Source: a virus. From it: a DNA stretch of 34,175 bases. Made by a program: the position numbers and the translations under genes. The stretch covers positions 1-34,175 of the IMG/VR virus record IMGVR_UViG_3300032307_000109; one strand, given 5' to 3'. The notes beneath the pieces are model-generated. The model searched no databases. It was given only the letters and a program-made list of their open reading frames with translations, and had not been told where the DNA came from. This document shows, piece by piece, positions 2,345 through 33,826 of this stretch. Position 1 is the stretch's first letter; the number at the start of each line of letters is the position of its first letter.

Positions 2345-2755
2345 TTAAAACTCCATGATGTAAACATTGACAGATTTACCGTCAACTTCTGCTTGTTTCT
2401 TTTGAACAGGCAAACCAGTCATCTTTGCCAGCCTGTCAAACTTGTTGTCTTCACTGTAGGTATAAGCAACCTTGACTTTGATGTTTTTAAGATAGTTCAC
2501 CAAATCAACAAAGTTTTTAGCCATGTTTCTGGGGCTTGGCTCAGTGCCAATCGTGTGAACTTCAACAACACCTTCCCCACGAACCAACACAAGAAACAGA
2601 ACATTGCCCAAGTGAACCAGCTTTGCGCCGTCTTCTTGAATCAAGGTTGCCAGCTTGCCCATCGCCTCATCAGCGGCCTCTTGAGAGCCTAACTCTTGCA
2701 AGAAATACTGGTTAGCAATTCTGACAACTTCTTGCTGTTCTGCTTGGTCAATCAT
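2345..2755 (-). CDS. Small protein after portal, GNAT-like fold possible
   Basis: The gene encodes 136 residues; its ATG overlaps the portal stop (ATGA). The pattern is alpha/beta: an N-terminal helix pair, two strand-like runs (GNVLFLVLVRGEGVVEVHTIG), a helix (NMAKNFVDLVNYLKNI), a strand (VKVAYTYSE), then DNKFDRLAKMTGLPVQ and a final strand. The layout strand-helix-strand-N-x-K/R-x-x-R-L-A-x-x-x-G-L resembles the C-terminal half of GNAT acetyltransferases, as described for some podovirus virion proteins such as T7 gp13. The acetyl-CoA loop is not clear, so activity is doubtful. The call is tentative. Confidence 0.55.
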   Translation of the reverse strand: MIDQAEQQEVVRIANQYFLQELGSQEAADEAMGKLATLIQEDGAKLVHLGNVLFLVLVRGEGVVEVHTIGTEPSPRNMAKNFVDLVNYLKNIKVKVAYTYSEDNKFDRLAKMTGLPVQKKQAEVDGKSVNVYIMEF

Positions 2756-4887
2756 CCTGGAATCTCCACGTTAGAAGTGATGCCAGCACCGACCTTCATG
2801 GCTTTAAGCTGTGCCTCTGCTTGGAACTCTTGCTCTTTCATGGCAAAGTGCATATTCATCTTCTCACGCTCAATCTGAAGTTTTGAGGCTTCTTTCTCGC
2901 GCATCAGTTGAATTTCGGCAGCGGCCTTGTCACGCTGGAGTTGCAGCTCAAGTGCGGCTTTCTGGCGCTCAAACTCCAGATCAGCTTCCATCTTAGCCTG
3001 TTGCATTTGCATATCGGCTTGGAATTTGGCTTGCTGCCCTTGAATCTCTGCCTGTGTCCTTGCCATTAGTGCCTGAACCTCTGGAGGCATTTGTGGCTCT
3101 TGTGGTGCAGGGTTAGACAGTTGCTGGTCTTGCTCAGGTGTAATCGGCTTGAAGAACTCAGCAGAATCCTTGAAGCCAGCAGCCTCAACCATGCGACCAA
3201 GAGAAGCACGATACTGACCAAACGAGACAAACGGGTTAGCGGGGCCGAACTGACCCAACATTTGCTCTTGCTTTGCCAACACCATTTGCAGCATTGCCAT
3301 TTGCTGGTCACGGTTGCCGTTACCCAGACCGACATTCACTGTCAGGTCATACTTGTTGGCCCAAGTGCGGGGGTCAATAGCAACGTAAGTGCCACGCAAG
3401 CGGATGATTCGCTCTTTCTGCTGGTACTTAGTAACCAGGTGCAAGATGCCATAGAACAGGTCACGGACACCAGTATCAGCAAAGATACGGGCAATCATTT
3501 CAATCTTTCCGGCTCCGGCTTGCTGCATCGAGGCCACGGCTGCGGCTGTCACGTTCTGCAAGATAGAAGCGTCAAGGCCTTGGCTTGCGTCAGTCACGCC
3601 AGTGCGCTTAGATTGGACTCGATCCAAGTATTCCAGCATCGGGAACGATTGTTGAGCCACGTTCTGAACTGTCAACTGAGTAACAGCACCTTGCGTCTTT
3701 GCCCGAATCACGCCACCAGCAGTAGAGGTCAGCAGGTCATCCAGGTTAACTTGTCCTTCAACAGCCACCACACGAGCGTTGTTGGTCAGGTACAGGTTAT
3801 CCAGCATTTGACGGGTAACAGTGGTCTTAATCAGTTGCAGGTCAACAGTGCGATCTGCCAGTGAGTTGCCAAAGAACTTGTGCGGAATTGGAATTGGGCA
3901 GACTGAGTAGAACGGAACATAGTCCGCTTCTTCATTGCTCAGAATCTCGTTGCTCGCGTAGAAGACTTGGCGCAGTTCAGCGATACCGTCTTCATCCTCA
4001 TCCACACGGACGTAGCACTCAAAGACTTCAATCTCTTGCATTGCCCAGTCTTCTGCCTGAGTGTCATACGGCTGCTCACCGGGGCTAAAACGTGCAACTC
4101 GTTCAGGCGTGTAGGCCAGAGCATCACCAGAAGCCAAGCCGTTAACGATTTCCTCATCAAAGCCCATTGCCACCAAGTCGCTGCGGGTAATCATCCGGCG
4201 GTGTGCAACAAAAGGTGATGTTTCAATCTTCACACCACGCTTGGAAATCAAGAACTCCTCTGGAGGCACGTTCTCAACGACAACCTTCCCAGACTTTGTG
4301 CGCTTGCTCACCTTAACATCATGAACACCAAACATGGCTTGTGTACCGTCTTCATTGAAAACAGGCATACCCATTGGGTCAAGAATAGGGAATTCCTGAG
4401 TATCTTGCTCAACAATTTCAAGGTCTTTGTCTTGCATCATCAAGGCAAGTTCGTCATCAGACAGACCCTGATAAGTCTCCTTGGTAACGTCTTCCTTGTC
4501 TTCCCAGTACGCCTTAACGATGCCGTTCTTTTGAAGCAAGGCATCTTTAAACCAGTCGTGCATGATTATCACGCCGGGGTTGTCGTTCAGGAAAATATAG
4601 TTCAGGTAGTCTGTGACTTGTTTAGCGCCAGCCTCATCGCCGGGGCCAGTTGGGTTTGCCACCACAACCTCGTCAGAACTTGCAAAGATTCGCATCAATG
4701 CTGGCATTGCGCCATCAATGGCTTCTGCTACCTCACCAGTAACGATCGAAGATTTGCCTTCGACCTCGTTCCCGTAAGGTTGGCGCAAGTAGGCTTGGAG
4801 TGCTTGCTTGCGCTGCTCTACGGTTTCGCTCTCAATGAAACCGATGGAGTTGTCGATTTCAGCCTGGAGGATCGCTTTTAAGTTCAT
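2752..4887 (-). CDS. Portal (head-tail connector) protein
   Basis: This 711-residue protein has the length and position of P22-type portals and directly follows the terminase. The portal forms the dodecameric channel through which DNA is packaged and ejected. The N-terminus has a helical 'ALQAYLRQPYGNEVEG' segment and the phrase VTGEVAEAIDGAMPALMRIF, typical of podovirus portals in this group. Residues of about 600-711 form a long K/E/Q-rich coiled coil (many repeats of QAK, ERQKAALELQLQ, IQLMREKEAS), which matches the barrel helices of P22-type portals. The start is ATG with AGGTG about six bases upstream. Its 5' end overlaps the small gene 4859-5029 by 29 bases. Confidence 0.88.
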   Translation of the reverse strand: MNLKAILQAEIDNSIGFIESETVEQRKQALQAYLRQPYGNEVEGKSSIVTGEVAEAIDGAMPALMRIFASSDEVVVANPTGPGDEAGAKQVTDYLNYIFLNDNPGVIIMHDWFKDALLQKNGIVKAYWEDKEDVTKETYQGLSDDELALMMQDKDLEIVEQDTQEFPILDPMGMPVFNEDGTQAMFGVHDVKVSKRTKSGKVVVENVPPEEFLISKRGVKIETSPFVAHRRMITRSDLVAMGFDEEIVNGLASGDALAYTPERVARFSPGEQPYDTQAEDWAMQEIEVFECYVRVDEDEDGIAELRQVFYASNEILSNEEADYVPFYSVCPIPIPHKFFGNSLADRTVDLQLIKTTVTRQMLDNLYLTNNARVVAVEGQVNLDDLLTSTAGGVIRAKTQGAVTQLTVQNVAQQSFPMLEYLDRVQSKRTGVTDASQGLDASILQNVTAAAVASMQQAGAGKIEMIARIFADTGVRDLFYGILHLVTKYQQKERIIRLRGTYVAIDPRTWANKYDLTVNVGLGNGNRDQQMAMLQMVLAKQEQMLGQFGPANPFVSFGQYRASLGRMVEAAGFKDSAEFFKPITPEQDQQLSNPAPQEPQMPPEVQALMARTQAEIQGQQAKFQADMQMQQAKMEADLEFERQKAALELQLQRDKAAAEIQLMREKEASKLQIEREKMNMHFAMKEQEFQAEAQLKAMKVGAGITSNVEIPG

Positions 4888-5029: not shown

Positions 5030-6280
5030 TTAGACCACCCATTTCGGAATTACGTTAATAGACTTGCCCCAAGAACCAGTGTTTTCATCGAGTGCTACGG
5101 CAACATATCGCCAAGCATCGGCAGCGTGTGAGTGCTGGTCATGCAATGGCTTATTGGAGAACATCTTAGTGTTTGGGTCAACGTCATAGCGGTAATGACG
5201 CAGGTTCTGGAGGCCATCAGCGCAGCGAGTCTCGTCAATGAAACACCTGTTCATCAGTGTTCGAGCCGCATTGATACCGTCAGCAACCGACAGTTTTGGT
5301 GTGATTCTGATGGGTTTGCCCATGCCTTCAAGAATGTCCTTAACCGATTTCCCGGTCATATTCTTGTTCTCAGCATCGTGCGGAAGCCACCAATCTTTGT
5401 AGATATAGCCCTTGTCCTGCAAAACCTGAGCGTAATGGTCGATGGTTTTTTGGCAGTTTTGGTAGAAATCAATCACCCTGATCTCGCCACCAGCAATCAC
5501 CTGGACGAACCAAATCGAGGTCATGTCTGCCCATCCCAAGTCCCAGAAGGTTTGAACAGGGATGTTCTTGTCAATAATTAACTCACGGATGCGGCCCTCT
5601 TCCTGAGCCTTACGCAGTTCATTGGCGTACACAGCACCATCCAGCATTTGACGGGTGTGGCCCTCCCAGACGTTTAGGTAAGCATCCACGTTCTTGGCCT
5701 TCAGGTCTTCCAGCTCGTCTTTCAGGACTTGAGGGAACCACGGGTTATCCGACCAGTTCATCTTGACGATCTTGGCGGTTGCTGGAGGGTTGACCACAAA
5801 CCGCTTATAAGTCTCGTCAGTGTCAAGATCAGGGTTAAACGTCACCCATATCTCAGAATCAGGCTTACGGATTGTTGGAATCAGTGTCTCCCATGAGACT
5901 TTGGATACCGCTTGGCCTTCTTCAATCCAGCAAATGTCCACGCCCTCGAAAGACCTGATTGAGGTGACGTTTTGCTTTAGACCCGCAAAACTGAACTCAG
6001 ACCCGTTCTTTCCGTAGATAGCTGTGCGCTGTACGTCAAAGAAAGACTCAAGCCCCATAGCCTTGATCTGGTCGCCCAATAGAGCAATCACAGAGTCGGA
6101 GATACTGTTCTGCAACTCACGGGCGCACAAGATACGGGTTTGCTTCTGGACTGCAATGGCAATCAAAGCACGAGCAACCGACCAAGACTTGGCAGACCCT
6201 CGCCCACCATAAAGAATCTTGTATCGGTGCGGCTCAAACAGGAAACCCAATTTCTCGGGAAAGTCCAGTTCAAGATTCAT
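5030..6280 (-). CDS. terL: Terminase large subunit (PBSX/Terminase_3 type)
   Basis: The large terminase is the ATP-driven packaging motor and nuclease that cuts concatemeric DNA and pumps it through the portal. The 416 residues show a Walker A motif GGRGSAKS (25-32), a Walker B-like DICWIEE (115-121) with the catalytic glutamate, and a coupling motif VTFNPD (146-151). The C-terminal nuclease has acidic candidates at D247 (WDLGWAD), D302 (PHDAENKN) and D388 (HSHAADAWRY). Length is normal for the PBSX family. The start overlaps the end of the small subunit by 11 bases and the stop abuts the 56-residue gene, consistent with one operon. Confidence 0.95.
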   Translation of the reverse strand: MNLELDFPEKLGFLFEPHRYKILYGGRGSAKSWSVARALIAIAVQKQTRILCARELQNSISDSVIALLGDQIKAMGLESFFDVQRTAIYGKNGSEFSFAGLKQNVTSIRSFEGVDICWIEEGQAVSKVSWETLIPTIRKPDSEIWVTFNPDLDTDETYKRFVVNPPATAKIVKMNWSDNPWFPQVLKDELEDLKAKNVDAYLNVWEGHTRQMLDGAVYANELRKAQEEGRIRELIIDKNIPVQTFWDLGWADMTSIWFVQVIAGGEIRVIDFYQNCQKTIDHYAQVLQDKGYIYKDWWLPHDAENKNMTGKSVKDILEGMGKPIRITPKLSVADGINAARTLMNRCFIDETRCADGLQNLRHYRYDVDPNTKMFSNKPLHDQHSHAADAWRYVAVALDENTGSWGKSINVIPKWVV

Positions 6281-6608
6281 TCGGCTTGACCAGTTTGATT
6301 TGGATTGCCTGAATATCTACAGGGCCACCGTCTTCACCAGTAACCTCAGTACGATTCAGCTTAGGTGTGGCGTATTCAGCCATTTGAGCCAGCAAAGTCA
6401 GAGCAGCCCTTGGGTCAGGCTTCAGCTCTTTTGCTGTGTCTCCCTCTGCAACTTGTTTTAGCCATTTAGAGACGTTTTCAGCGTTATCCTCTAGTAGCCT
6501 AGTCACTGTCTCTCTAAACGTCTTGGTGGCCTTATTAACGCTTCCCGGTGGCCTTCCCCTGCCACGGTTGGTTAAATTCTCAGATTTTCCGGCCTGTAAA
6601 TTATTCAT
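6270..6608 (-). CDS. terS: Terminase small subunit-like protein
   Basis: This 112-residue protein precedes and overlaps the large terminase. It starts with a basic, AT-hook-like segment (NRGRGRPPGSVNKATKTF), followed by helices (RETVTRLLEDNAENVSKWLKQ and DPRAALTLLAQMAEYATPKLNR). The pattern of a basic N-terminus and a helical oligomerisation core, together with the gene order, fits DNA recognition for packaging. The start is ATG at 6608 with GGGAG ten bases upstream. A short inverted repeat (GCAGA/TCTGC, 6644-6659) lies in the 54-base gap before it. Confidence 0.82.
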   Translation of the reverse strand: MNNLQAGKSENLTNRGRGRPPGSVNKATKTFRETVTRLLEDNAENVSKWLKQVAEGDTAKELKPDPRAALTLLAQMAEYATPKLNRTEVTGEDGGPVDIQAIQIKLVKPNES

Positions 6609-6662: not shown

Positions 6663-7571
6663 TTAATCTAGCAATCCACCATTGCGTCTGAGGATTGTAA
6701 GCAAATCTTCGTTGCCGGGGAAGATAACAAAGTTTGTTGGCATATCTTCTCTGCCGCCCTGAAAGTGTCTTATGCCAGGGATTCCAGCTTGCCGCATCAT
6801 TTCAGCGCCTTCTGGCCTCTTTGCTCCCATTGCGGCAATCAAATCACCTCCAAGATGGTCTGGATCAGTCAATCCGTACTGCTTTGCAAGTGCTTGTATT
6901 TCTGGGGATTGATCTTTTAGAGGGCGATCAAAATCCAGCATCTTGGCAATTTGTTCGTCAGGAAGGTCGATTTCGTACATAAATGAAGGAGGTACATTTT
7001 TCCCTTCATACTCAGAAATTCTCTTAATCAAGCCTTCTGGATCAGAAAAAGCCTCTGGCCTTCTTTGGATCAACTCGGCAAGTTTTGCCGTATCACCACC
7101 AGTGAATTGCTTTGCGTTCATCATAATGAGCGCATCTTTTGTGACTTGATCTGAGGTTTCTTTTGATGTAACCCTCATCCTTTTTGATGGGTTTTCAGCC
7201 ATTTCCTTGTAGGAAGTTGCAATGGCAGGTGACTCGGTTACGTAATGTCCATATCCATACTGCTGCGAACCCTCACCAGAACCGATCTTTGTGCGGTCAA
7301 AGCGATTGAACTTAGCAGGGCTACCGTGAAACACTGTCAAACCCATAGGGTTGTACGCATCAGCCATCAGACCAGCCAAACGCTGCGTTGCAGGCCCGTA
7401 GTTCACGCCTTCCCTTGCGGCTGCGGCTGTCATTTCGTTGAGGTTACGCGCTCTGTCGTTCAGGTTTCCGACCATTTGCTGTGCGCTCAATACTGGATTA
7501 CCGAGCAAATCGCGCAGTTTTCTCTTGGCTACGTTGCCAGCACTAAAAACATCACCAAGCAATCCAGCCAT
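6663..7571 (-). CDS. ADP-ribosyltransferase-like (ART-PolyVal-type) protein
   Basis: The 302-residue protein has an N-terminal helical part (1-75), then a segment with the typical look of ADP-ribosyltransferase domains found in phage polyvalent proteins: LTVFHGSPAKFNRF (78-91), IGSGEGSQQYGYGHYVTE (96-113), FMYEIDLPDEQI, and a C-terminal GIPGIRHFQGG followed by TNFVIFPGNEDLLTI. The H-G-S and YGYGHYVTE segments correspond to the first two parts of the H-Y-E type NAD-binding site. The third catalytic residue is not obvious. Such enzymes can modify host or phage proteins. It is encoded just upstream of terS, with GAGG ahead of its ATG, so it may be expressed late or packaged. The target is unknown. 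Confidence 0.75.
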   Translation of the reverse strand: MAGLLGDVFSAGNVAKRKLRDLLGNPVLSAQQMVGNLNDRARNLNEMTAAAAREGVNYGPATQRLAGLMADAYNPMGLTVFHGSPAKFNRFDRTKIGSGEGSQQYGYGHYVTESPAIATSYKEMAENPSKRMRVTSKETSDQVTKDALIMMNAKQFTGGDTAKLAELIQRRPEAFSDPEGLIKRISEYEGKNVPPSFMYEIDLPDEQIAKMLDFDRPLKDQSPEIQALAKQYGLTDPDHLGGDLIAAMGAKRPEGAEMMRQAGIPGIRHFQGGREDMPTNFVIFPGNEDLLTILRRNGGLLD

Positions 7572-7579
7572 GATTTACC

Positions 7580-7831
7580 TCACCACTTAACCTTATTTGC
7601 CCAGAAAGCTGCGCTCATCTTGCCCTTGGCGATGTTTTCTGCGTGTCTAGCCTTAAATGCCTCGTTGCGCTTAGAGCCATCAGGCGAACCCTTCACGCCT
7701 TGTTGACCAAAGCGGATCAGCTTCACATCGTCACCAGACTTTGCCAACACAGCATGGCTCTTTGTCGGGTGGTTTGGAGTGCGTTTGGGCTTGTTGTAGC
7801 CCGAAAATGACTCTGTGCCGCGCTTAATCAT
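7580..7831 (-). CDS. Small basic conserved-type phage protein, 83 aa
   Basis: The protein is strongly basic and rich in K, G and S, with phrases such as VKLIRFGQQGVKGSP, RNEAFKARHAENIAKGK and AFWANKVKW. I recall near-identical small proteins from many phages next to terminase genes, without a known function. Its ATG overlaps the stop of the 51-residue gene upstream (ATGA). A nucleic-acid or virion-core association is plausible from charge only. Confidence 0.75.
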   Translation of the reverse strand: MIKRGTESFSGYNKPKRTPNHPTKSHAVLAKSGDDVKLIRFGQQGVKGSPDGSKRNEAFKARHAENIAKGKMSAAFWANKVKW

Positions 7832-11704: not shown

Positions 11705-12025
11705 AGGTAGTGGCACATCGTCAGGCCATAGGCCACGCAGTCTTAGGATAGTTACCGTCAGCCTGTGTGCGTCTTCCCACATTTCCATGCGCTCGGCTTT
11801 GGTCATTGTTGCGCCCTGGTCAAGCTGGCTGTGACAGTGAAAACATAGACTTGCGATCAGGTTGTCATCAGCCTTAATCCCTCTGCCCTTACCACCACCC
11901 CAATTTGTGTGAGCCGCCACAACAGTCCCGTCATCAGCAAGGCAATGCTGGCAAGGTATCTTTCTTGCGTTCTCCAACAGCTTTTTGCTGCGGATGTAGT
12001 TATGCTTCGGGAATTTCAACGCCAT
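11690..12025 (-). CDS. YbcO-like (DUF1364) His-Me finger nuclease
   Basis: The 111 residues show CQHC (25-28), VVAAHTNWGGGKGRG (35-49) with H39, and LCFHCHSQLDQG (60-71) with CxxCH. This cysteine/histidine arrangement is that of the YbcO/DUF1364 family, small metal-dependent nucleases encoded in lambdoid nin regions next to NinB and RusA, as here. It probably acts in phage recombination or DNA processing. The start overlaps the ninB stop by 26 bases. Confidence 0.8.
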   Translation of the reverse strand: MALKFPKHNYIRSKKLLENARKIPCQHCLADDGTVVAAHTNWGGGKGRGIKADDNLIASLCFHCHSQLDQGATMTKAERMEMWEDAHRLTVTILRLRGLWPDDVPLPKGFH

Positions 12026-12410
12026 TTTGTGCTGCCCATGCTAATAGCCATTCAGTAAACTGGCTTGCCTCGTCTTTTTTGAACTTCCTTGTCTGCAAAC
12101 CTAACTGGACAATCCCAGTGCCATCCAGACTAGGAACCAGCTTGCCAGTGCTGATCCCCACTTCTTTTGCAAACTGCCAAACAAGAAACCGCTTCCAATC
12201 CTCTTGTGACCACTTGGCTCCGAGGTGACTTGCTTGCTTTGCAATTTGACCAATGATTGCGTGATACATCTCTTCCTGGTCGCGGCTCTTAGATTCTTTC
12301 TCAACAGTCAGAACTAGCTTATTCCCTGCCAGCAGGTAAGGCTTGGCCTTTGCCCAAATGTCTTTCAGAACAGTGTGACCCTGCTGTGCGTTGTGAAGGG
12401 TCACTTTCAT
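12000..12410 (-). CDS. ninB: NinB (lambda Orf-like) recombination protein
   Basis: The 136-residue protein shows the NinB pattern: LVLTVEKESKSRDQEEMYH, then IIGQIAKQASHLGAKWSQED, then VPSLDGTGIVQLGLQTRKFK and a final helix. Lambda Orf helps load recombinase on SSB-coated DNA, replacing RecFOR. Length is normal for the family. It is coupled to rusA by ATGA and followed by the YbcO-like nuclease, the classic nin-region order. Confidence 0.88.
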   Translation of the reverse strand: MKVTLHNAQQGHTVLKDIWAKAKPYLLAGNKLVLTVEKESKSRDQEEMYHAIIGQIAKQASHLGAKWSQEDWKRFLVWQFAKEVGISTGKLVPSLDGTGIVQLGLQTRKFKKDEASQFTEWLLAWAAQNGVEIPEA

Positions 12411-12820
12411 GGCAACTCCTCACGGACGCAAACATGGACGCTGGCGATAGTTTCGTATCGCTTGGTAACGTGAAGGCTAACCACCTGAACGTCATCCTTG
12501 TAAACAATCCCGTTCATGGCATCCAGATACGCTTTGGCGCAGTTATCTAGATCAGGCTTCTTAGGACGCTCCAAACGATTTAAACAGGCTTCACGGCGTT
12601 TTTTACTGTATGACGCTGGTACGGCATGGTTGATGTAAATATAGACCGATACAGGCGTTTCTAGTGGCTCTGATGACCCCATTGCTGAACGTGCTTTGTC
12701 GGCAATCTGCTTTTCGTAGTCAACCGTCTTTTTTGGGGTGTAGGTTCTGCCACGGGCAAACTTTGGGCGCTGCTTGCCAACAGGGTCGCCCTCTACGCTG
12801 TAAATTACTTGGAACGTCAC
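12407..12820 (-). CDS. rusA: RusA Holliday junction resolvase
   Basis: RusA cuts four-way junctions as a dimer. The 137 residues contain GDPVGKQRPKFARG (11-24) and RPKKPDLDNCAKAYLDAMNG (86-105) with acidic residues D90, D92 and D100, then YKDDVQV with D109/D110. These match the conserved catalytic acids of the family. It starts with GTG at 12820, overlapping the previous stop. Confidence 0.93.
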   Translation of the reverse strand: MTFQVIYSVEGDPVGKQRPKFARGRTYTPKKTVDYEKQIADKARSAMGSSEPLETPVSVYIYINHAVPASYSKKRREACLNRLERPKKPDLDNCAKAYLDAMNGIVYKDDVQVVSLHVTKRYETIASVHVCVREELP

Positions 12821-13029: not shown

Positions 13030-13132
13030 CTAAGTCCCCTGTCAGTCTCAGTGCCTGGTCAATGATGTGCTTTGGGTACGGTACACCCTCACGCACTTTG
13101 TCCAAGATTTGCATGGCTTGTTGGTGGCTCAT
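13001..13132 (-). CDS. 43-residue protein between the methyltransferase and 12817-13029
   Basis: The ATG at 13132 overlaps the stop of the methyltransferase (ATGA), which decides the start over an ATG at 13150. The peptide reads MSHQQAMQILDKVREGVPYP then KHIIDQALRLTGDLDELQQE. It is helical and acidic at the end. No function is recognised; similar small proteins occur beside phage methyltransferases. Confidence 0.6.
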   Translation of the reverse strand: MSHQQAMQILDKVREGVPYPKHIIDQALRLTGDLDELQQEDDL

Positions 13133-14049
13133 GTTGTCAACAATCTCCATGCTGTTGCTGCACAGAGTGGGACTTGTCCGTTACCAATGGCTTTAAGTCT
13201 GTCCACCCTAGCGGCCACCCCATCAGCCACTCGACCCACGTTGGGTTCAGCTTGCCACCATTCCCGGCTCCCATTTGTCTGGCTTCGTCCACTGTTGTGT
13301 TCTTGTTGAGCAAATCCCATGACCCACTGCCGCCACACATCCCCTTTGTCCGAGGTGTGGGCCAATGAACCTGCGTCCCAAGGTTTGGCGATTTCCTGTT
13401 GCCTTGGCTTGCTCCGCTGTCCTTCCAATCCCGAGCGTTCGGACTTGCCCACATCCTTTTCCCTACAACCGTCTCCAGATTTGGATTCCTTTTTTCGTTC
13501 CAGGCTGATTCTGGAGTTATTGTTGCCGCCATCGCCGAGCAGCTTCTTGGAGTTGGCCAACTTTCCGACAATCCACATTCTGTCCCGTTTGTGGTTGGCT
13601 CCAACGTCTGCAGCTCCCATAACCGTCCAGCGACAGTCATACCCCATTTCGGCAAGATCGCCAACGACTCTTGTTCCTCCTCGAGTAGTGAGCATTGGGG
13701 AGTTCTCCACAAAGACGTATTGGGGTCGTACTTCGCCAACCACCCTCGCCATGTGTCGCCACATTCCTGATCGCTCTCCATCAAGGCCATCGCCTTTTCC
13801 TGCTGCTGAAATGTCTTGGCATGGAAACCCGCCAGATACAACGTCAACAATTCCTCTCCACGGTTTTCCGTCAAAGGTTTGTACGTCATCCCAAATCGGG
13901 AAAGGCGGGAGAAGACCGTCATTTTGTCGGGCGCACAGTACGCTTGCTGGATAGGGTTCCCACTCAACGGCGCAGACGGTTCGCCATCCGAGGAGGTGTC
14001 CCCCAAGTATTCCTCCACCAGCACCCGCGAATAAAGCCAACTCATTCAT
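13129..14049 (-). CDS. DNA (cytosine-5-)methyltransferase
   Basis: The protein transfers methyl from SAM to cytosine C5, probably to hide phage DNA from restriction. Counted from the ATG at 14049 (a TTG at 14058 adds three residues), motif I is LALFAGAGGG, motif IV has GGFPCQDIS with the catalytic C77, motif VI is ENS (115-117), motif VIII is KRDRMW, and motif X ends IGNGQVP (near 288-294). The middle (about 163-265) is K/S/R-rich and short for a target-recognition domain. No restriction partner is nearby, so it is an orphan enzyme. A second long frame overlaps almost all of it. Confidence 0.92.
   Translation of the reverse strand: MNELALFAGAGGGILGGHLLGWRTVCAVEWEPYPASVLCARQNDGLLPPFPIWDDVQTFDGKPWRGIVDVVSGGFPCQDISAAGKGDGLDGERSGMWRHMARVVGEVRPQYVFVENSPMLTTRGGTRVVGDLAEMGYDCRWTVMGAADVGANHKRDRMWIVGKLANSKKLLGDGGNNNSRISLERKKESKSGDGCREKDVGKSERSGLEGQRSKPRQQEIAKPWDAGSLAHTSDKGDVWRQWVMGFAQQEHNSGRSQTNGSREWWQAEPNVGRVADGVAARVDRLKAIGNGQVPLCAATAWRLLTT
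13137..14045 (-). CDS. Overprinted open frame inside the methyltransferase gene, 302 aa
   Basis: This frame is on the same strand as the methyltransferase, shifted by one base, and stays open for 302 codons. Its ATG at 14045 lies four bases after the methyltransferase ATG, so both could use the same initiation region. The product looks protein-like: MSWLYSRVLVEEYLGD, FSRLSRFGMT, DPNTSLWRTPQCSLLEEE, repeated WPTPR, WASPNARDWK and LNPTWVEWLMGWPLGWTDL. I recall proteins of this type annotated in many phages with cytosine methyltransferases. Part of the likeness could be passive, because the other frame is conserved. Whether it is translated is not shown. Confidence 0.45.
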   Translation of the reverse strand: MSWLYSRVLVEEYLGDTSSDGEPSAPLSGNPIQQAYCAPDKMTVFSRLSRFGMTYKPLTENRGEELLTLYLAGFHAKTFQQQEKAMALMESDQECGDTWRGWLAKYDPNTSLWRTPQCSLLEEEQESLAILPKWGMTVAGRLWELQTLEPTTNGTECGLSESWPTPRSCSAMAATITPESAWNEKRNPNLETVVGKRMWASPNARDWKDSGASQGNRKSPNLGTQVHWPTPRTKGMCGGSGSWDLLNKNTTVDEARQMGAGNGGKLNPTWVEWLMGWPLGWTDLKPLVTDKSHSVQQQHGDC

Positions 14050-14058
14050 CTGCGCCAA

Positions 14059-17046: not shown

Positions 17047-17198
17047 ACACAGCTTTCCTCAAGCGAGTCCGCAGGTTGTATTGTGTGGATGGTGTGCCAG
17101 CGCACATTCAACGTCATAACTGCCGCCAGTGGGTCAAGTCGATCCGCTTCCTTGGTGACAAGTGGTTGCTTGCAAAACAGATCGAGAGAACACAATGA
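17043..17198 (+). CDS. 51-residue basic protein
   Basis: It overlaps both neighbours by ATGA. The sequence is highly basic: MNTAFLKRVRRLYCVDGVPA, then HIQRHNCRQWVKSIRFLGDK and a helix ending QIERTQ. C and H residues (C14, H21, H25, C27) could bind metal. A nucleic-acid role with the ERF gene downstream is plausible. Confidence 0.6.
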   Translation: MNTAFLKRVRRLYCVDGVPAHIQRHNCRQWVKSIRFLGDKWLLAKQIERTQ

Positions 17199-17803
17199 AC
17201 GTCTATCAAAAACTCAATGCTGCTCGGGCTAAGTTCCACAGTATCGAACTCAAGAAGTCAGGCCACAACAAGTTTGCTGGTTACAAATACTTTGAACTTG
17301 CTGACTTCATTATCCCTGCTTTGGAAATCTTCAAAGAGCATGGTCTGACAGGCATCATCAGCTTTGGCAAGGAAACTGCTGATCTGCGGATCATCAACAA
17401 CGAAAATCCAGAGGAGGTGATTGTCATTGAGTCACCCATGTCCAGCGCAGCTTTAAAGGGCTGTCACGAGGTGCAAAACCTTGGGGCAGTGCAGACATAC
17501 CTGCGCCGTTATTTGTGGGTTGCAGCCCTCGAAATCGTTGAGCATGACGCTATTGATTCAGCGCCAGCAAAAGAGAAGGTTATCATCACTCCCTCACAGG
17601 GTATTGCAGACTCTATTCCTCAAGAGGAAATGCAGTACCTTCAAGAATTGGCGGTCGAGTTGATCGCTGATGTAGCTGAAGGCAATCCAAAGCAAGCCCT
17701 TGAAAGACTTGATTCGGAAAACCTAGAGGCTGACCAAAAGGTTGCATTGTGGTCACTGCTTGACAGCAAGACCCGTTCGGCAATCAAAAAAGCAAAGGAA
17801 TGA
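17195..17803 (+). CDS. erf: ERF-family single-strand annealing recombinase
   Basis: The ATG at 17195 overlaps the previous stop; an upstream start at 17162 would intrude into the gene before. The 202 residues show the ERF core: MNVYQKLNAARAKFHSIELK, then GHNKFAGYKYFELADFIIP (24-42), and QNLGAVQTYLRRYLWVAALE (94-113). P22 Erf-type proteins form rings that anneal complementary single strands, promoting circularisation and recombination of phage DNA. The C-terminal part (about 135-202) is acidic and helical as usual. The SSB-like gene follows, forming a natural pair. Confidence 0.9.
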   Translation: MNVYQKLNAARAKFHSIELKKSGHNKFAGYKYFELADFIIPALEIFKEHGLTGIISFGKETADLRIINNENPEEVIVIESPMSSAALKGCHEVQNLGAVQTYLRRYLWVAALEIVEHDAIDSAPAKEKVIITPSQGIADSIPQEEMQYLQELAVELIADVAEGNPKQALERLDSENLEADQKVALWSLLDSKTRSAIKKAKE

Positions 17804-23911: not shown

Positions 23912-25687
23912 TTATGGGCGATAGGTCAGCGACTCATTGACCAGCTTTTGCAACGCTTTTTGTCTTGCCGATTCTTCTGCGTACCTTGTTGCAGAACCAA
24001 CACCGGGAATACGAGAAAGAGGAGACTTGTTGACGTTCTCAAGAGCGCGAATCAATGCGCTGGATGTGTTTGAATAATTGGCAGTGCCGGGAACAGAACT
24101 GTAAACATCAAGCATCACATCGCGCAAATTTCTGATTTCTTCAGCGCCTTTCTTGCCAAAGATGTAATCCAATTTCCCATCAGCATCCAAGTCTCTGACG
24201 ATTGTGTTCATTCGTGCAGCAGAAGGAATTGGCGCACCATTCGCATCACGCTGAGTGCTTCTTGTCACTTGGTCACGAATGTAATCAAGCGTTTGGCCCT
24301 GCAACTCTCTCCATGCCTGTTGACCTTGTGTGCCGCCCTTTTTGAGCAGTACAGCAATGTTGCGAGTGTCATCAAAGCTACCCTTAAGGACAGCAAACTC
24401 AAACACATCCTCAAGAGCAACAGCACGATCTGTAGTTCCAGGCTTTTTACTAAGCAACCTATCTACAGCGGCTGCATCCTCAAATTGACGAGCGTACTGA
24501 ACACGCATTTGACGAGCTTGACGATACAAGTCGCCGCCAGCACCTTCTGTGCTTTGGTTTATCAAAGCCTTCAAGTCTTTACCTTGCACCTCGTTAGGCG
24601 TGTTTGGTTGAGCGTTCCTGTTGATAAACTGGTACACATCCTCAAGCGCATCAATTGTCACCATGCCAGTGTTGCTAGGATCATTCTTCTTAAGCTGATC
24701 TTCAACAGCACCAAGAATTGGAGCCAACTTTTCTTTTACAGTTGGCCCTTGCTCGTTAATGTAAGCAATCAGGTTGTCATAAGGAACCATTGCTTTTGTT
24801 TCGCCAGATTGTCTTGCCAACTCATAAGCATCGTTGACCTTCTTTTTGGCCTCTTTTGCTTGTTTGACAAGCGCGGCGTCAACAATTTTGCCAACAGGAC
24901 GCAGCAAACCAGACATTTCAGCGCCAGTTGCAGTCGTGTATGCGTCAAAGTTTCTCAGAATGTTCTGGTTAGTTTCGATCTGGCGTTTCAGCAGTGGAGA
25001 GCCAACAGTCTCTGGGTATGTCTTTGCTGTTTCAATTTCAAACTGTTGTGCGCCTGGCTGACGAGTTGCTTGACCCTTTGTCAACTCCACAGGAACTCGC
25101 AACTCTTGGCCGCGAATCTGTCTTTGAATGGCTTTGCCAGTTTCAGCAGAACCCATGCCAATCATTGGTTGCACTGGCTCTTGCGAACGGATGACGTTCA
25201 AAACCTCGTTAAGAGTTGTTGGCGCTCTAGCAGCTTGTGTAGAAACAGCCTGTCCAGCCTGTCGTGTGGTTCCAGTAGCCAATGGCTGAAAAGACACAGC
25301 ACCCGGCATAAAAGGAGGAATCTTTGTTGCTTCAGCACCACGACCAACAGCCTCCAAAACATTCTGTGCTGTTTGAGTGCGAGGCTGATATTGGATGTTC
25401 GAGGCGACTTGTCTTTGGAACTCAGGGCTAACAGCGCCAGCCAAATATGTCAGAGGGCCAGTTGCGATGTTTGCCGCAAGTGCGAAAGGCGTTTCAACTA
25501 GACCACGAACTCTGTCAGCCACAGTTTGCTCAGGTTCAACCGTAGGCGCTGTTACAGCACCAGGCTCAACAGGGATTTGCCCAGCACTGCCAGCGGAAAG
25601 CATCCGCAAGGCGGCATCAGACATAGATGCGAAATCGTTATTCGCAAGCGCCCTTAAGTCTTTATCTGACAGTTTGCTCAAGTCCAT
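23912..25687 (-). CDS. Putative internal virion/ejection protein, 591 aa
   Basis: The protein starts MDLSKLSDKDLRALANNDFA and is highly helical. It includes an A/G/P-rich segment (residues 60-100: ALAANIATGPLTYLAGAVS) and a long K/E-rich region. There is no enzymatic motif. Large helical proteins between hub and fibre genes in podoviruses are usually internal core or DNA-ejection proteins. It starts within the stop of the preceding gene (TAATG). Confidence 0.75.
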   Translation of the reverse strand: MDLSKLSDKDLRALANNDFASMSDAALRMLSAGSAGQIPVEPGAVTAPTVEPEQTVADRVRGLVETPFALAANIATGPLTYLAGAVSPEFQRQVASNIQYQPRTQTAQNVLEAVGRGAEATKIPPFMPGAVSFQPLATGTTRQAGQAVSTQAARAPTTLNEVLNVIRSQEPVQPMIGMGSAETGKAIQRQIRGQELRVPVELTKGQATRQPGAQQFEIETAKTYPETVGSPLLKRQIETNQNILRNFDAYTTATGAEMSGLLRPVGKIVDAALVKQAKEAKKKVNDAYELARQSGETKAMVPYDNLIAYINEQGPTVKEKLAPILGAVEDQLKKNDPSNTGMVTIDALEDVYQFINRNAQPNTPNEVQGKDLKALINQSTEGAGGDLYRQARQMRVQYARQFEDAAAVDRLLSKKPGTTDRAVALEDVFEFAVLKGSFDDTRNIAVLLKKGGTQGQQAWRELQGQTLDYIRDQVTRSTQRDANGAPIPSAARMNTIVRDLDADGKLDYIFGKKGAEEIRNLRDVMLDVYSSVPGTANYSNTSSALIRALENVNKSPLSRIPGVGSATRYAEESARQKALQKLVNESLTYRP

Positions 25688-27081
25688 TAACGACCTCCCC
25701 TTTGACGGCGTGCAAGCTCGGCAGCGGCTTGGGCTGCCAAATCACCAGCAGCAGGAGGCGCTGGAACTTGCCCTTGGTCAATAAACTTACCGCCAGGGCC
25801 AGCAGAAATCCTCATACCTTTAATCGCTGCTTCTCGTGCCAATTGCTTTTGACGCACAACTTCTGGTGGCTCACCAGGAGCAGGGAAGTAAGTTTTCTCA
25901 GCCGTTGCGTATTCAGTTGCAGCGATAGACGCGCCAGATTCCTTGCGCAAAAGTGCTGTAATGAAGTTTGTGCGAGCCTGAATGACTTTTTGTTGCTCTG
26001 GACTCAATCCACCCAAAATGCTTGGCAATACGTTGAAGACGTTATCAGAGCCACGACCAAGAGACTCGCCAATCAAAGGAACAGCACTAAGTGTTCCAGT
26101 AACGCCAGCGCGAATCTTGCCAGTATCTTTCAAACCAGCATCCTCTAATGGCTTAAGAATCTGATCGGCTTGCACCATCCTCAAACCATAAGTTACGGCA
26201 TTGCCTTGGCCCTCCGTCAGTGCGCCAGAACCTTTGCCCATAACTGGTTTGCCGTTCTGCATCAATGGCGACAAAGCGCCAGTGCGAGGGTTCAACAGTT
26301 GAACACCATTCTCTGTCTCAACAGTTTGCAATGAAACTGGCCCTTCAGGTGCGCGGCCTTTTGGCAACCGCAAAACCTCTTTGCCATCTTGAATCCCAAT
26401 AACCACGTTGCCCAAATCTTGGAACTGAATCGGCTGACGTTTTTGAGCGCCGACAGCAACTTGCCTTGTTTCGCCAGTAAACGGATCACGCTCAAACTGT
26501 GTAGCGCCTTCAGCAAGTGAGAAGGTTTCAGGGCGCATTGCCTTTTGCGCTGCAACCAAGTCAGTCAAGGTTTTACGGCCTTGTGGGCTTGCCATCAAAG
26601 CAGGAGCCAGAGACTGAAGATCAAGGCCAGCAGCACGAGCCTGAACAGGAGCCGTAGCACCAGGCATCATGTTGCCCTCATCGTCCATGATCGGCATCTG
26701 AGTTGCTTCACCATAGAACTGAGCAGGAGCAGCGGCCTGAGCAGGTTGGAACGATGCAGCCACAGCACGGTCAATCAGTTGCTGACGGGCCAAGGCATCT
26801 TCTTCCAGCTTACGTTTACGCAATGCGTCTTTCAGTTGTACGCCTTGGAACTGCTCTTGCAGTTGGTTTTGCATGGCGTTTTTGTACGCTTGGCTACCTT
26901 GCTGTAGGCCACGCACGATTGACAGCCCTGTAGGGCCACCAGACAGCAAAGAACCAGCCAAGGAATACAAAGCCTGAGCCTGAGCATCATCACGGCTACG
27001 CTGGATGGCCTCTGGACTCATTCCCAAGAGACCAAGCGTATCAGTTCCGCTTGTGCCAAAAATGTCGAGTAGTCCGTTCAT
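25687..27081 (-). CDS. Putative internal virion/ejection protein, 464 aa
   Basis: The protein begins MNGLLDIFGTSGTDTLGLLG and has a segment SLAGSLLSGGPTGLSIVRGL, a helical Q-rich part, and a C-terminal ARTNFITALLRKESGASIAA followed by TEYATAEKTYFPAPGEPPEV. I recall this last signature in ejection-type proteins of marine and freshwater podoviruses. No transglycosylase catalytic motif is clear. Confidence 0.75.
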   Translation of the reverse strand: MNGLLDIFGTSGTDTLGLLGMSPEAIQRSRDDAQAQALYSLAGSLLSGGPTGLSIVRGLQQGSQAYKNAMQNQLQEQFQGVQLKDALRKRKLEEDALARQQLIDRAVAASFQPAQAAAPAQFYGEATQMPIMDDEGNMMPGATAPVQARAAGLDLQSLAPALMASPQGRKTLTDLVAAQKAMRPETFSLAEGATQFERDPFTGETRQVAVGAQKRQPIQFQDLGNVVIGIQDGKEVLRLPKGRAPEGPVSLQTVETENGVQLLNPRTGALSPLMQNGKPVMGKGSGALTEGQGNAVTYGLRMVQADQILKPLEDAGLKDTGKIRAGVTGTLSAVPLIGESLGRGSDNVFNVLPSILGGLSPEQQKVIQARTNFITALLRKESGASIAATEYATAEKTYFPAPGEPPEVVRQKQLAREAAIKGMRISAGPGGKFIDQGQVPAPPAAGDLAAQAAAELARRQRGGR

Positions 27082-32881: not shown

Positions 32882-33826
32882 TCAGCTCAAATCTGCAATG
32901 ATGCCGTGAGCAGCTTCATTCTTGACTTCCAGAGTCAATTCAGCCAGCAACTGAGTCTTCTCGGCGTCACCAGTCTTAGCCAATTCAATGGTCTCGAAAG
33001 GACGCAGGTAAGCCACAGCAGCCATGTCAGGATCGACCACAAAAGCAGTCTCGTTACCGCTGTTAGTGCTGTTCATAAAAATATTCGGAACAATTGAGAT
33101 TACTCCGAAGTCACTCATGTAGAGGTCAGCCGCGCCCACAATAGTAGTAGGTTCGTTTGCAGGAGCCATGTAACGCTGTGCAGCGATACCAGCAAATGCC
33201 GACACGGTTTGCTTGTGAGCAGGGTTGACCATCAGCACTTTTGGCGAGCCACCAGCGGTGTAAACCTCAGCAACCACAGTTTTCAGGATTGCTTCAGTGA
33301 AGGTGCGGTTTGTGCCGTTGGTACGGGCAGTAGTACCGCCAGAACCAGCAACGCCATCAGTACCAAAGTCGCCGTTGGTGGACAACCAGGTTTGCAGACC
33401 GCCCATAGTGCGAGCAGTGCTAGAGTTGCCAACAGCAGCCACTTGGTTAGACAGCAAAGTCAGTTCGATGTTGCGCTTCAGTTCAGCCGAAACTTTAGCC
33501 ATCTGGTAAGCCTTTTCAGACTTACGGCCAGCCTTGTCAACAGCTTCCAAAGTGCCAGCCACAGCCACAGACTTGGTGAAAATCTGAGTGCGGTTACCGA
33601 TACGCGATGTTGGCGAGGCAGTGATGCTAGAGGCATCAGCACCTTCAACAGCGCCACCCAGAGCTGGAGCAGCCAGAGCGTCAGTTTGCCACTCGTGATA
33701 AGTAGCAGTGGCCTTTGTCTTGCCGATAGACGACATGAAAGGTGTGGAAGTTGGGCTGATGTTATAGATAACATCGGTGAGGTCTTCACGCTGGCCGATG
33801 GCCGTATAGGTTTGATAGGTAGGCAT
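32882..33826 (-). CDS. Major capsid protein (SU10-like, DUF5309 family)
   Basis: The 314 residues open with MPTYQTYTAIGQREDLTDVI and SPTSTPFMSSIGKTKATATY, then EWQTDALAAPALGGAVEGAD, the signature of DUF5309/SU10 major capsid proteins with an HK97-like fold. Later parts include VLMVNPAHKQTVSAFAGIAA and a beta-rich end. It makes the shell of the head. GGAG lies seven bases before ATG 33826, after the scaffold gene. Confidence 0.92.
   Translation of the reverse strand: MPTYQTYTAIGQREDLTDVIYNISPTSTPFMSSIGKTKATATYHEWQTDALAAPALGGAVEGADASSITASPTSRIGNRTQIFTKSVAVAGTLEAVDKAGRKSEKAYQMAKVSAELKRNIELTLLSNQVAAVGNSSTARTMGGLQTWLSTNGDFGTDGVAGSGGTTARTNGTNRTFTEAILKTVVAEVYTAGGSPKVLMVNPAHKQTVSAFAGIAAQRYMAPANEPTTIVGAADLYMSDFGVISIVPNIFMNSTNSGNETAFVVDPDMAAVAYLRPFETIELAKTGDAEKTQLLAELTLEVKNEAAHGIIADLS

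What the first reader, a model, noticed from the sequence alone, without database searches (positions are those of the whole stretch)
6663..7571. ADP-ribosyltransferase-like gene in the packaging block
A protein with H-G-S and YGYGHYVTE signatures and a GIRHFQGG...FPGNEDLLT end fits phage ART (polyvalent-type) domains. Position just before terS means late expression or packaging into the virion, so it may modify host proteins at the start of the next infection or protect phage products. The catalytic third residue is not clear.
Basis: partly seen in the sequence, partly recalled or inferred. Interest (0 to 1): 0.6.

Follow-up and report, generated by a model that had tools for sequence, protein, structure and literature searches.

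The report
Swappable phage effector with ART fold
A phage gene next to the DNA-packaging genes encodes an ADP-ribosyltransferase-fold protein that is one allele of a slot in which related phages keep the same front end but swap the enzyme behind it, and even swap pieces inside the enzyme, which suggests a modular, possibly injected, weapon against bacterial hosts.

Summary
The ORF is real (6663-7571, minus strand, 302 aa) and has the ADP-ribosyltransferase (ART) fold. It hits Pfam ART-PolyVal below the cut-off. The AlphaFold model's best PDB neighbours are nearly all ARTs (low significance); predicted phage ART-PolyVal structures match significantly. His82 and Tyr110 sit where expected. The third residue resolves: the strand-5 position of the PARP glutamate is Asn280, Asn in 85/85 relatives. 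This member also lost a near-invariant Asp in the preceding loop, so transferase activity is unproven.

The surprise lies around it. The 76-aa N-terminus is a constant module. At the same locus (before TerS-TerL-portal) relatives join it to ART, GNAT, LPD23/HExxH metallopeptidase-like, ParB-like or unknown domains, with sharp DNA breakpoints, and often end in [GS]LL[DG]. Within the ART, two helical cassettes are exchanged independently among 85 homologues: 47 and 48 classes in 77 combinations; every recurring class occurs with at least two partners. I read it as an allele of a non-MuF polymorphic effector slot, probably virion cargo that modifies host targets chosen by the cassettes. Fold, slot polymorphism and cassette exchange are shown; packaging, injection, catalysis and targets are inferred.

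The parts
6663..7571 (-). ART-fold effector gene, 302 aa, ATG 7571-7569, stop 6665-6663
7344..7571 (-). N-module, aa 1-76: constant front end, joined in relatives to different catalytic domains
   Evidence: AlphaFold low confidence, helical
7209..7343 (-). ART scaffold S1, aa 77-121 (strands 1-2; HGSP, IGSGEGxQxYGYGHY)
   Evidence: a single cluster in 85 homologues
7326..7328 (-). His82, strand 1 NAD-binding His position
   Evidence: H in 74/77, Q in 3
7242..7244 (-). Tyr110, strand 2 Tyr position
   Evidence: 77/77
6981..7208 (-). V1 cassette, aa 122-197, helical insert between strands 2 and 3; exchanged between homologues
   Evidence: boundaries approximate
6909..6980 (-). Scaffold S2, aa 198-221 (FMYEIDLPDEQIAKMLDFDRPLKDQ), hyperconserved joint between the two cassettes
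6786..6908 (-). V2 cassette, aa 222-262, helical insert between strands 3 and 4; exchanged between homologues
   Evidence: same V2 class as L003 and L088
6681..6785 (-). Scaffold S3, aa 263-297: strand 4, loop before the catalytic strand (ARTT-loop position), strand 5, strand 6
   Evidence: the loop lacks the Asp kept in 75 of 76 aligned sequences
6732..6734 (-). Asn280, at the PARP catalytic Glu position in strand 5
   Evidence: N in 85/85 and 77/77
6666..6680 (-). C-terminal tail GGLLD, motif [GS]LL[DGE] shared by slot proteins with unrelated catalytic domains
   Evidence: 33/68 slot proteins, 0 of about 160 neighbour genes
7580..7831 (-). 83-aa gene (phrog_7595) directly upstream; not tied to one type of slot allele
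6270..6608 (-). TerS-like gene downstream of the slot
   Evidence: position before TerL
5030..6280 (-). TerL
   Evidence: PF04466 3e-38
2752..4887 (-). SU10-type portal protein
   Evidence: PF23899 8.7e-218
17162..17803 (+). ERF-superfamily annealing recombinase, candidate driver of cassette exchange
   Evidence: PF04404 8e-10; the role is inferred
12407..12820 (-). RusA resolvase; NinB lies at 12000-12410
   Evidence: PF05866 3e-31, PF05772 6e-18

Best explanation
The gene is one allele of a polymorphic effector slot in a family of uncultured short-genome phages (about 33-37 kb, SU10-type capsid and portal). A constant N-module (and often a constant [GS]LL[DG] tail) acts as the delivery handle, most likely for loading into the virion with the packaging machinery; the C-terminal part is the exchangeable payload. 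Here the payload is an ART-fold domain. Its scaffold binds NAD+ through His82 and Tyr110, and because the catalytic Glu is replaced by an invariant Asn it most likely acts, if active, as a mono-ADP-ribosyltransferase whose chemistry is completed by the target (as in H-Y-phi mono-ARTs). The V1 and V2 helical cassettes, which flank the conserved joint VDLPDEQIAKMLDWDKPL, are recombined independently and most likely set target choice or escape from host inhibitors. Shown: ORF, fold by prediction, residue identities, slot polymorphism, cassette exchange. Inferred: late expression, packaging and injection, NAD+ use, targets.
For: Fold: PF18760 and DUF3990 hits; AF2 core pLDDT above 90, strand order of an ART, 23 best PDB matches of the trimmed model are ARTs, BFVD ART-PolyVal models. 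Slot: N-module plus GNAT, LPD23/HExxH, diverged ART, ParB-like or unknown domains, at p8152-(p7580)-slot-TerS-TerL-portal; DNA of window vs L016 is 92-95% alike up to codon 77 and resumes at the last codons; two complete public genomes MW202710/MW202462 share the N-module at 78% but differ in payload. A second, unrelated N-module carries the same kinds of payload. Cassettes: 47 V1 and 48 V2 classes, 77 combinations in 85; all 18 recurring V1 and all 19 recurring V2 classes have at least 2 partners; L063/L079 are 98.8% identical in DNA on both sides and differ only across V1; synonymous similarity is highest in S2 (0.61 vs 0.41-0.53), as expected if S2 is a crossover site. Literature: ARTs near terminase and portal genes are predicted head cargo (PMC9503650); substrate-assisted catalysis in mono-ARTs lacking Glu (PMC9189837).
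Against: No PDB match reaches E<0.001. No acid at either candidate third position (Asn280; position 285 is Pro; the loop Asp is deleted), so this member may be inactive. No virion proteomics, no host, no target. No named cultured phage carries the N-module. The [GS]LL[DG] tail could reflect shared 3' recombination ends rather than a signal.
Confidence: 0.55

Rival explanations
1. A catalytically dead ART-fold protein that binds NAD+ or ADP-ribose or a host protein (decoy, inhibitor or sponge), for example against NAD-based anti-phage defences.
For: Asn instead of Glu in 85/85, loss of the loop Asp in this member, while His and Tyr stay.
Against: Strong conservation of the His-Tyr pocket, and swapping with enzymatic payloads (GNAT, HExxH metallopeptidase-like), fit an enzyme better; active mono-ARTs without Glu exist.
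Confidence: 0.25
2. A non-virion late or early factor acting inside the infected cell (host takeover or superinfection exclusion), placed by TerS only because that is a permissive insertion point between early and late genes.
For: The slot lies at the junction of replication-type genes and packaging genes; variable accessory genes are common at such places.
Against: Conserved N-module and tail across unrelated payloads; payload types match the polyvalent virion effectors of PMC5512222; an LPD23-containing homologous region lies in a 15-kb 'structural protein' gene of phage 8P.
Confidence: 0.25
3. Cassette combinations are partly metagenome assembly chimeras joined at the conserved S2 stretch.
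For: Most sequences are metagenomic contigs; S2 is about 70 bp of high DNA similarity.
Against: The pattern recurs across dozens of samples and lineages; L063/L079 would need two chimeric joins within 98.8% identical DNA; slot-level swaps are also seen between separately deposited complete genomes.
Confidence: 0.06
4. A toxin-antitoxin or interbacterial polymorphic toxin with an immunity gene.
For: Best PDB fold neighbours include TA toxins ParT and RES; polymorphic toxins share the constant-N/variable-C layout.
Against: No linked immunity gene: the gene after the slot is TerS, and upstream p7580 is absent or displaced in many loci whatever the payload. No integrase was seen among the window proteins scanned.
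Confidence: 0.04

Closest known systems
ART-PolyVal (PF18760), ARTs of phage polyvalent proteins (Iyer et al. 2017, PMC5512222)
   Same: Fold, HGS and YGxGxY motifs, GI.GI.Y.D and NFVVF end; domain repertoire (ART, GNAT, MPTase, ParB, LPD); head-gene neighbourhood.
   Different: Small single-payload proteins with a constant N-module in one slot, not giant multidomain proteins; VDLPDEQIAKMLDWDKPL joint; independent V1/V2 cassette exchange; Asn280 with Pro285; this member also lacks the loop Asp.
MuF polymorphic toxins (Jamet et al. 2017, PMC5576092)
   Same: Constant N-terminal module plus variable effector (ART among them), beside portal/terminase genes, proposed injection with DNA.
   Different: No MuF domain; lies upstream of TerS instead of downstream of portal; no small immunity ORF; further modularity inside the effector domain.
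T4 Alt (and ModA/ModB)
   Same: Phage ART; Alt is packaged in the head and injected, as proposed here.
   Different: Different ART clade (Alt is an R-S-E type, from general knowledge); window protein has H-Y-N; packaging not shown.
Type I restriction HsdS target-recognition domains (analogy only)
   Same: Two variable recognition cassettes exchanged independently between conserved joints.
   Different: No homology; role of V1/V2 in recognition is inferred here.

Membership tests
ART superfamily | Split beta-sheet ART fold | tested here: met
   AF2 strand order 78-84, 109-112, 197-203, 266-270, 279-283, 292-296; best PDB neighbours all ARTs, but at E 0.08-5; significant to predicted phage ART-PolyVal models.
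ART superfamily (H-Y-E/D clade) | His in strand 1 and Tyr in strand 2 | tested here: met
   H82, Y110; 74/77 and 77/77.
ART superfamily (H-Y-E/D clade) | Acidic third residue in strand 5 (Asp in polyvalent ARTs per PMC5512222) | tested here: not met
   N280, N in 85/85; position 285 is P; loop Asp deleted in this member. Filed as an ART-fold homologue with an H-Y-N site, not as a proven H-Y-D transferase.
ART-PolyVal PF18760 | Score over the Pfam gathering threshold | tested here: not met
   25.4 bits vs 31.2, only positions 7-50 of 140; L272 28.9 bits.
ART superfamily | NAD+-dependent ADP-ribosyl transfer | not testable with these tools
   needs an assay
Polyvalent proteins | Two or more effector domains in one polypeptide | tested here: not met
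   Window protein has one payload; relatives L006, L008, L271 and the 0.9-1.6 kaa L024, L069, L077 have several.
MuF polymorphic toxins | MuF domain (PF04233/PF06152) | tested here: not met
   no Pfam match at E<0.1
MuF polymorphic toxins | Constant N-terminus with variable C-terminal effectors | tested here: met
Head-packaged injected effector (Alt-like) | Protein present in virions | not testable with these tools
   no proteomics; only gene position

The most novel reading that the evidence does not exclude
A non-MuF polymorphic virion-effector system with two levels of modularity: payload enzymes exchanged behind dedicated N-terminal (and [GS]LL[DG] C-terminal) loading tags, and within the ART payload two independently exchangeable target-recognition cassettes around an H-Y-N active site, giving combinatorial target choice.
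Probability: 0.35. Interest if true: 0.85.

Novelty: new variant of a known kind. Interest (0 to 1): 0.62.

Why it matters
If right, these phages diversify an injected enzyme the way bacteria diversify type I restriction specificity: by shuffling two recognition cassettes and, one level up, the whole enzyme. It offers natural chimeras (near-identical proteins differing only in V1 or only in V2) that make the question 'what decides the target of a phage ART' directly testable, a candidate loading tag for targeting proteins into phage heads, and a test of whether ARTs with Asn at the Glu position are enzymes.

Tried and rejected
phmmer and profile search of PDB sequences found no ART relative (only weak Nsp1 nucleoporin coiled-coil chance hits). 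NCBIfam: nothing. Phage GenBank search: one distant hit, Sulfitobacter phiGT1 gp5 in the head block; N-module none. Genome contigs: 8 hits, mostly on short MAG contigs, no host assignment possible. p7580 as immunity gene: rejected, not tied to payload type. Promoter/terminator scan: not above shuffles. The apparent Q271-for-D271 substitution in the alignment is better read as a deletion of the Asp (RHF-QGGR vs RYLDQGSR). One first full-length structure search diluted by the N-module was repeated with the trimmed domain; E-values improved only slightly.

Full report
1. The observation. The ORF at 6663-7571 is on the minus strand and codes for 302 aa. The quoted motifs are present. The start codon follows a GAGGT stretch that overlaps the end of the 83-aa ORF at 7580-7831. 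Downstream on the same strand lie a TerS-like gene, TerL (PF04466) and an SU10-type portal (PF23899); the major capsid protein at 32882-33826 is SU10-type too. The window is a virus record of 34,175 bases. Its nearest named relatives by TerL are unclassified 'Manatee Spring' phages of 33-37 kb (85-87% aa identity).

2. The fold. Pfam gives ART-PolyVal (2.8e-5) and DUF3990 (5.5e-4), both under their gathering scores. With an alignment of 45 relatives AlphaFold2 gave a confident core (blocks above pLDDT 90) and a low-confidence N-terminus; the trimmed domain with 77 relatives reached pLDDT 84, pTM 0.73. The best PDB fold neighbours are ARTs without exception down to rank 23 for the trimmed model (ParT, RES toxins, PE-like toxins, NatT, exotoxin A domain III, tankyrase), though none passes E<0.001. 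Against predicted viral structures 32 matches pass 0.001, many called ART-PolyVal-like. I take the ART fold as well supported.

3. The active site. H82 lies in strand 1, Y110 in strand 2. Strand 5 (279-283) reads TNFVI; laid beside PARP1 NEYIVYD (from general knowledge) N280 takes the place of the catalytic Glu. N280 is Asn in 85 of 85 cores although the search pattern allowed D, E, Q, S and T, and 77 of 77 in the alignment. Iyer et al. describe polyvalent ARTs as H, Y and an Asp in strand 5; I could not tell which column they mean. The two candidates are the Asp of YLD after strand 4 (75 of 76 rows; missing only in the window protein, which reads RHF-QGGR for RYLDQGSR) and the residue after NFVVF (Asp in several distant relatives such as L264, L265 and phiGT1 gp5, Pro in the window). 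The window protein has neither. Mono-ARTs lacking the Glu do exist and use substrate-assisted catalysis, so activity is possible but not given.

4. The slot. In loci that hold the downstream genes, the ART gene usually sits immediately before TerS-TerL-portal, across lineages with different N-termini. The first 76 aa form a module. A search with it alone found 24 IMG/VR loci in which the module is followed by an ART (window type, L272/L274, L007), a diverged ART (L276, L277), that ART plus a GNAT (L271), GNAT alone (L016/L267, L288), an LPD23 domain with a HELQH/HEIQH stretch (L268, L269, L270, L275, L286; PF18838 above cut-off in the three scanned, DUF6782 metallopeptidase in L269), a ParB-like DGNHRTDLAL domain (L279; by eye, no Pfam match), and two unknown domains (L281/L282; L283/L285/L287). 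Most stand at the same place in the genome. The L281-L287 group has no TerS nearby; L282, L284 and L285 lie next to homologues of the window's 25687-27081 protein instead.

5. Breakpoints. Window versus L016: 92% DNA identity upstream, 94.6% through codon 77, nothing across the payload, 89.6% again from the last codons on. L274 versus L271, L272 versus L276 and L282 versus L285 behave alike. A second N-module (that of L058) is likewise followed by ART, other ART types, HEIQH/LPD23-like and unknown payloads (PHROG links). In the public complete genomes, MW202710 (HEIQH type, ends RRGLLGR) and MW202462 (another payload) share an N-module at 78%.

6. The tail. [GS]LL[DGE] occurs in the last 12 residues of 33 of 68 distinct slot proteins, in none of about 160 distinct neighbour proteins, and in 8 of 501 other ORFs of at least 150 codons. 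It is found on ART, GNAT, LPD23 and ParB-like payloads. Sequences are related, so this is a description, not a significance test.

7. Cassettes inside the ART. I cut 85 unique cores at conserved anchors. The scaffold pieces S1 and S3 each form one cluster; V1 (between strands 2 and 3) falls into 47 classes and V2 (between strands 3 and 4) into 48. Pairs sharing V1 number 70, sharing V2 78, sharing both 9. All 18 V1 classes with at least two members occur with two or more V2 classes, and all 19 such V2 classes with two or more V1 classes; 77 combinations occur, with one complete two-by-two set; in the largest lineage the count of pairs sharing both (5) is near that expected under independence (3.5). 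At DNA level, L046/L255 are 100% alike in S1 and V1 but 49% in V2; L026/L218 are 100% alike in V2 but 44% in V1. L063/L079 are 98.9% and 98.7% identical on both sides and differ only across about 270 bp of V1. Given identical amino acids, codons agree most often in S2 (0.61 vs 0.41-0.53), as expected if S2 serves as a crossover point. The phage encodes an ERF annealing protein, RusA and NinB, a plausible engine; that link is inferred.

8. Mechanism. Cassettes are helical in the model and flank the cleft-forming strands; in characterised ARTs such regions and the loop before the catalytic strand contact the target (general knowledge). Hence I infer target choice, or escape from host inhibitors, as the reason for exchange. 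Payload types are those of polyvalent proteins, which are thought to be injected, and ARTs beside terminase genes are predicted head cargo. The N-module is the natural candidate for the loading tag. None of this has been shown for these phages.

9. Known or new. The domain family and the idea of packaged ARTs are known. MuF polymorphic toxins show the constant-N/variable-C principle, but MuF is absent here and the location differs. I found no paper on independent cassette exchange inside a phage ART or on this slot; only open-licence papers were searched. I rate it a new variant of a known kind.

Noticed in passing
window 13137-14045 (-) versus 13129-14058 (-): A 302-aa ORF overlaps the C5-cytosine methyltransferase ORF almost completely on the same strand in another frame, and tblastn finds that second frame conserved (25-46% identity, mostly full length) in 70 phage records such as Paenibacillus, Vibrio, Salmonella and Acinetobacter phages, over the methyltransferase gene. 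Possible fully overlapping gene pair.
   Followed up: partly
window 7580-7831 (-): The 83-aa ORF upstream of the slot (phrog_7595) also matches phrog_220, a minor head protein/DNA pilot family of over 1300 positions, and sits between ART and TerS in L011-L014.
   Followed up: partly
window 25687-27081 (-): A late-block protein begins MNGLLDIFGTSGTDTLGLLGM, echoing the GLL motif of slot proteins; N-module genes with other payloads lie beside its homologues in L282, L284 and L285.
   Followed up: no
L018, L088, L062, L069, L272: A third variable insert of about 40 aa lies between YLD and TSNF (ARTT-loop position) in several homologues; the window protein has the shortest loop seen.
   Followed up: no
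IMGVR_UViG_3300047553_000096 (L305, L338): One 60-kb contig holds two N-module genes about 35 kb apart, one with ART and one with an HEIQH/LPD23-like payload, perhaps two strains joined head to tail.
   Followed up: no
L068: An ART of this family is fused to an N-terminal part similar to the window's 23912-25687 late-block protein (phmmer 3e-6).
   Followed up: no
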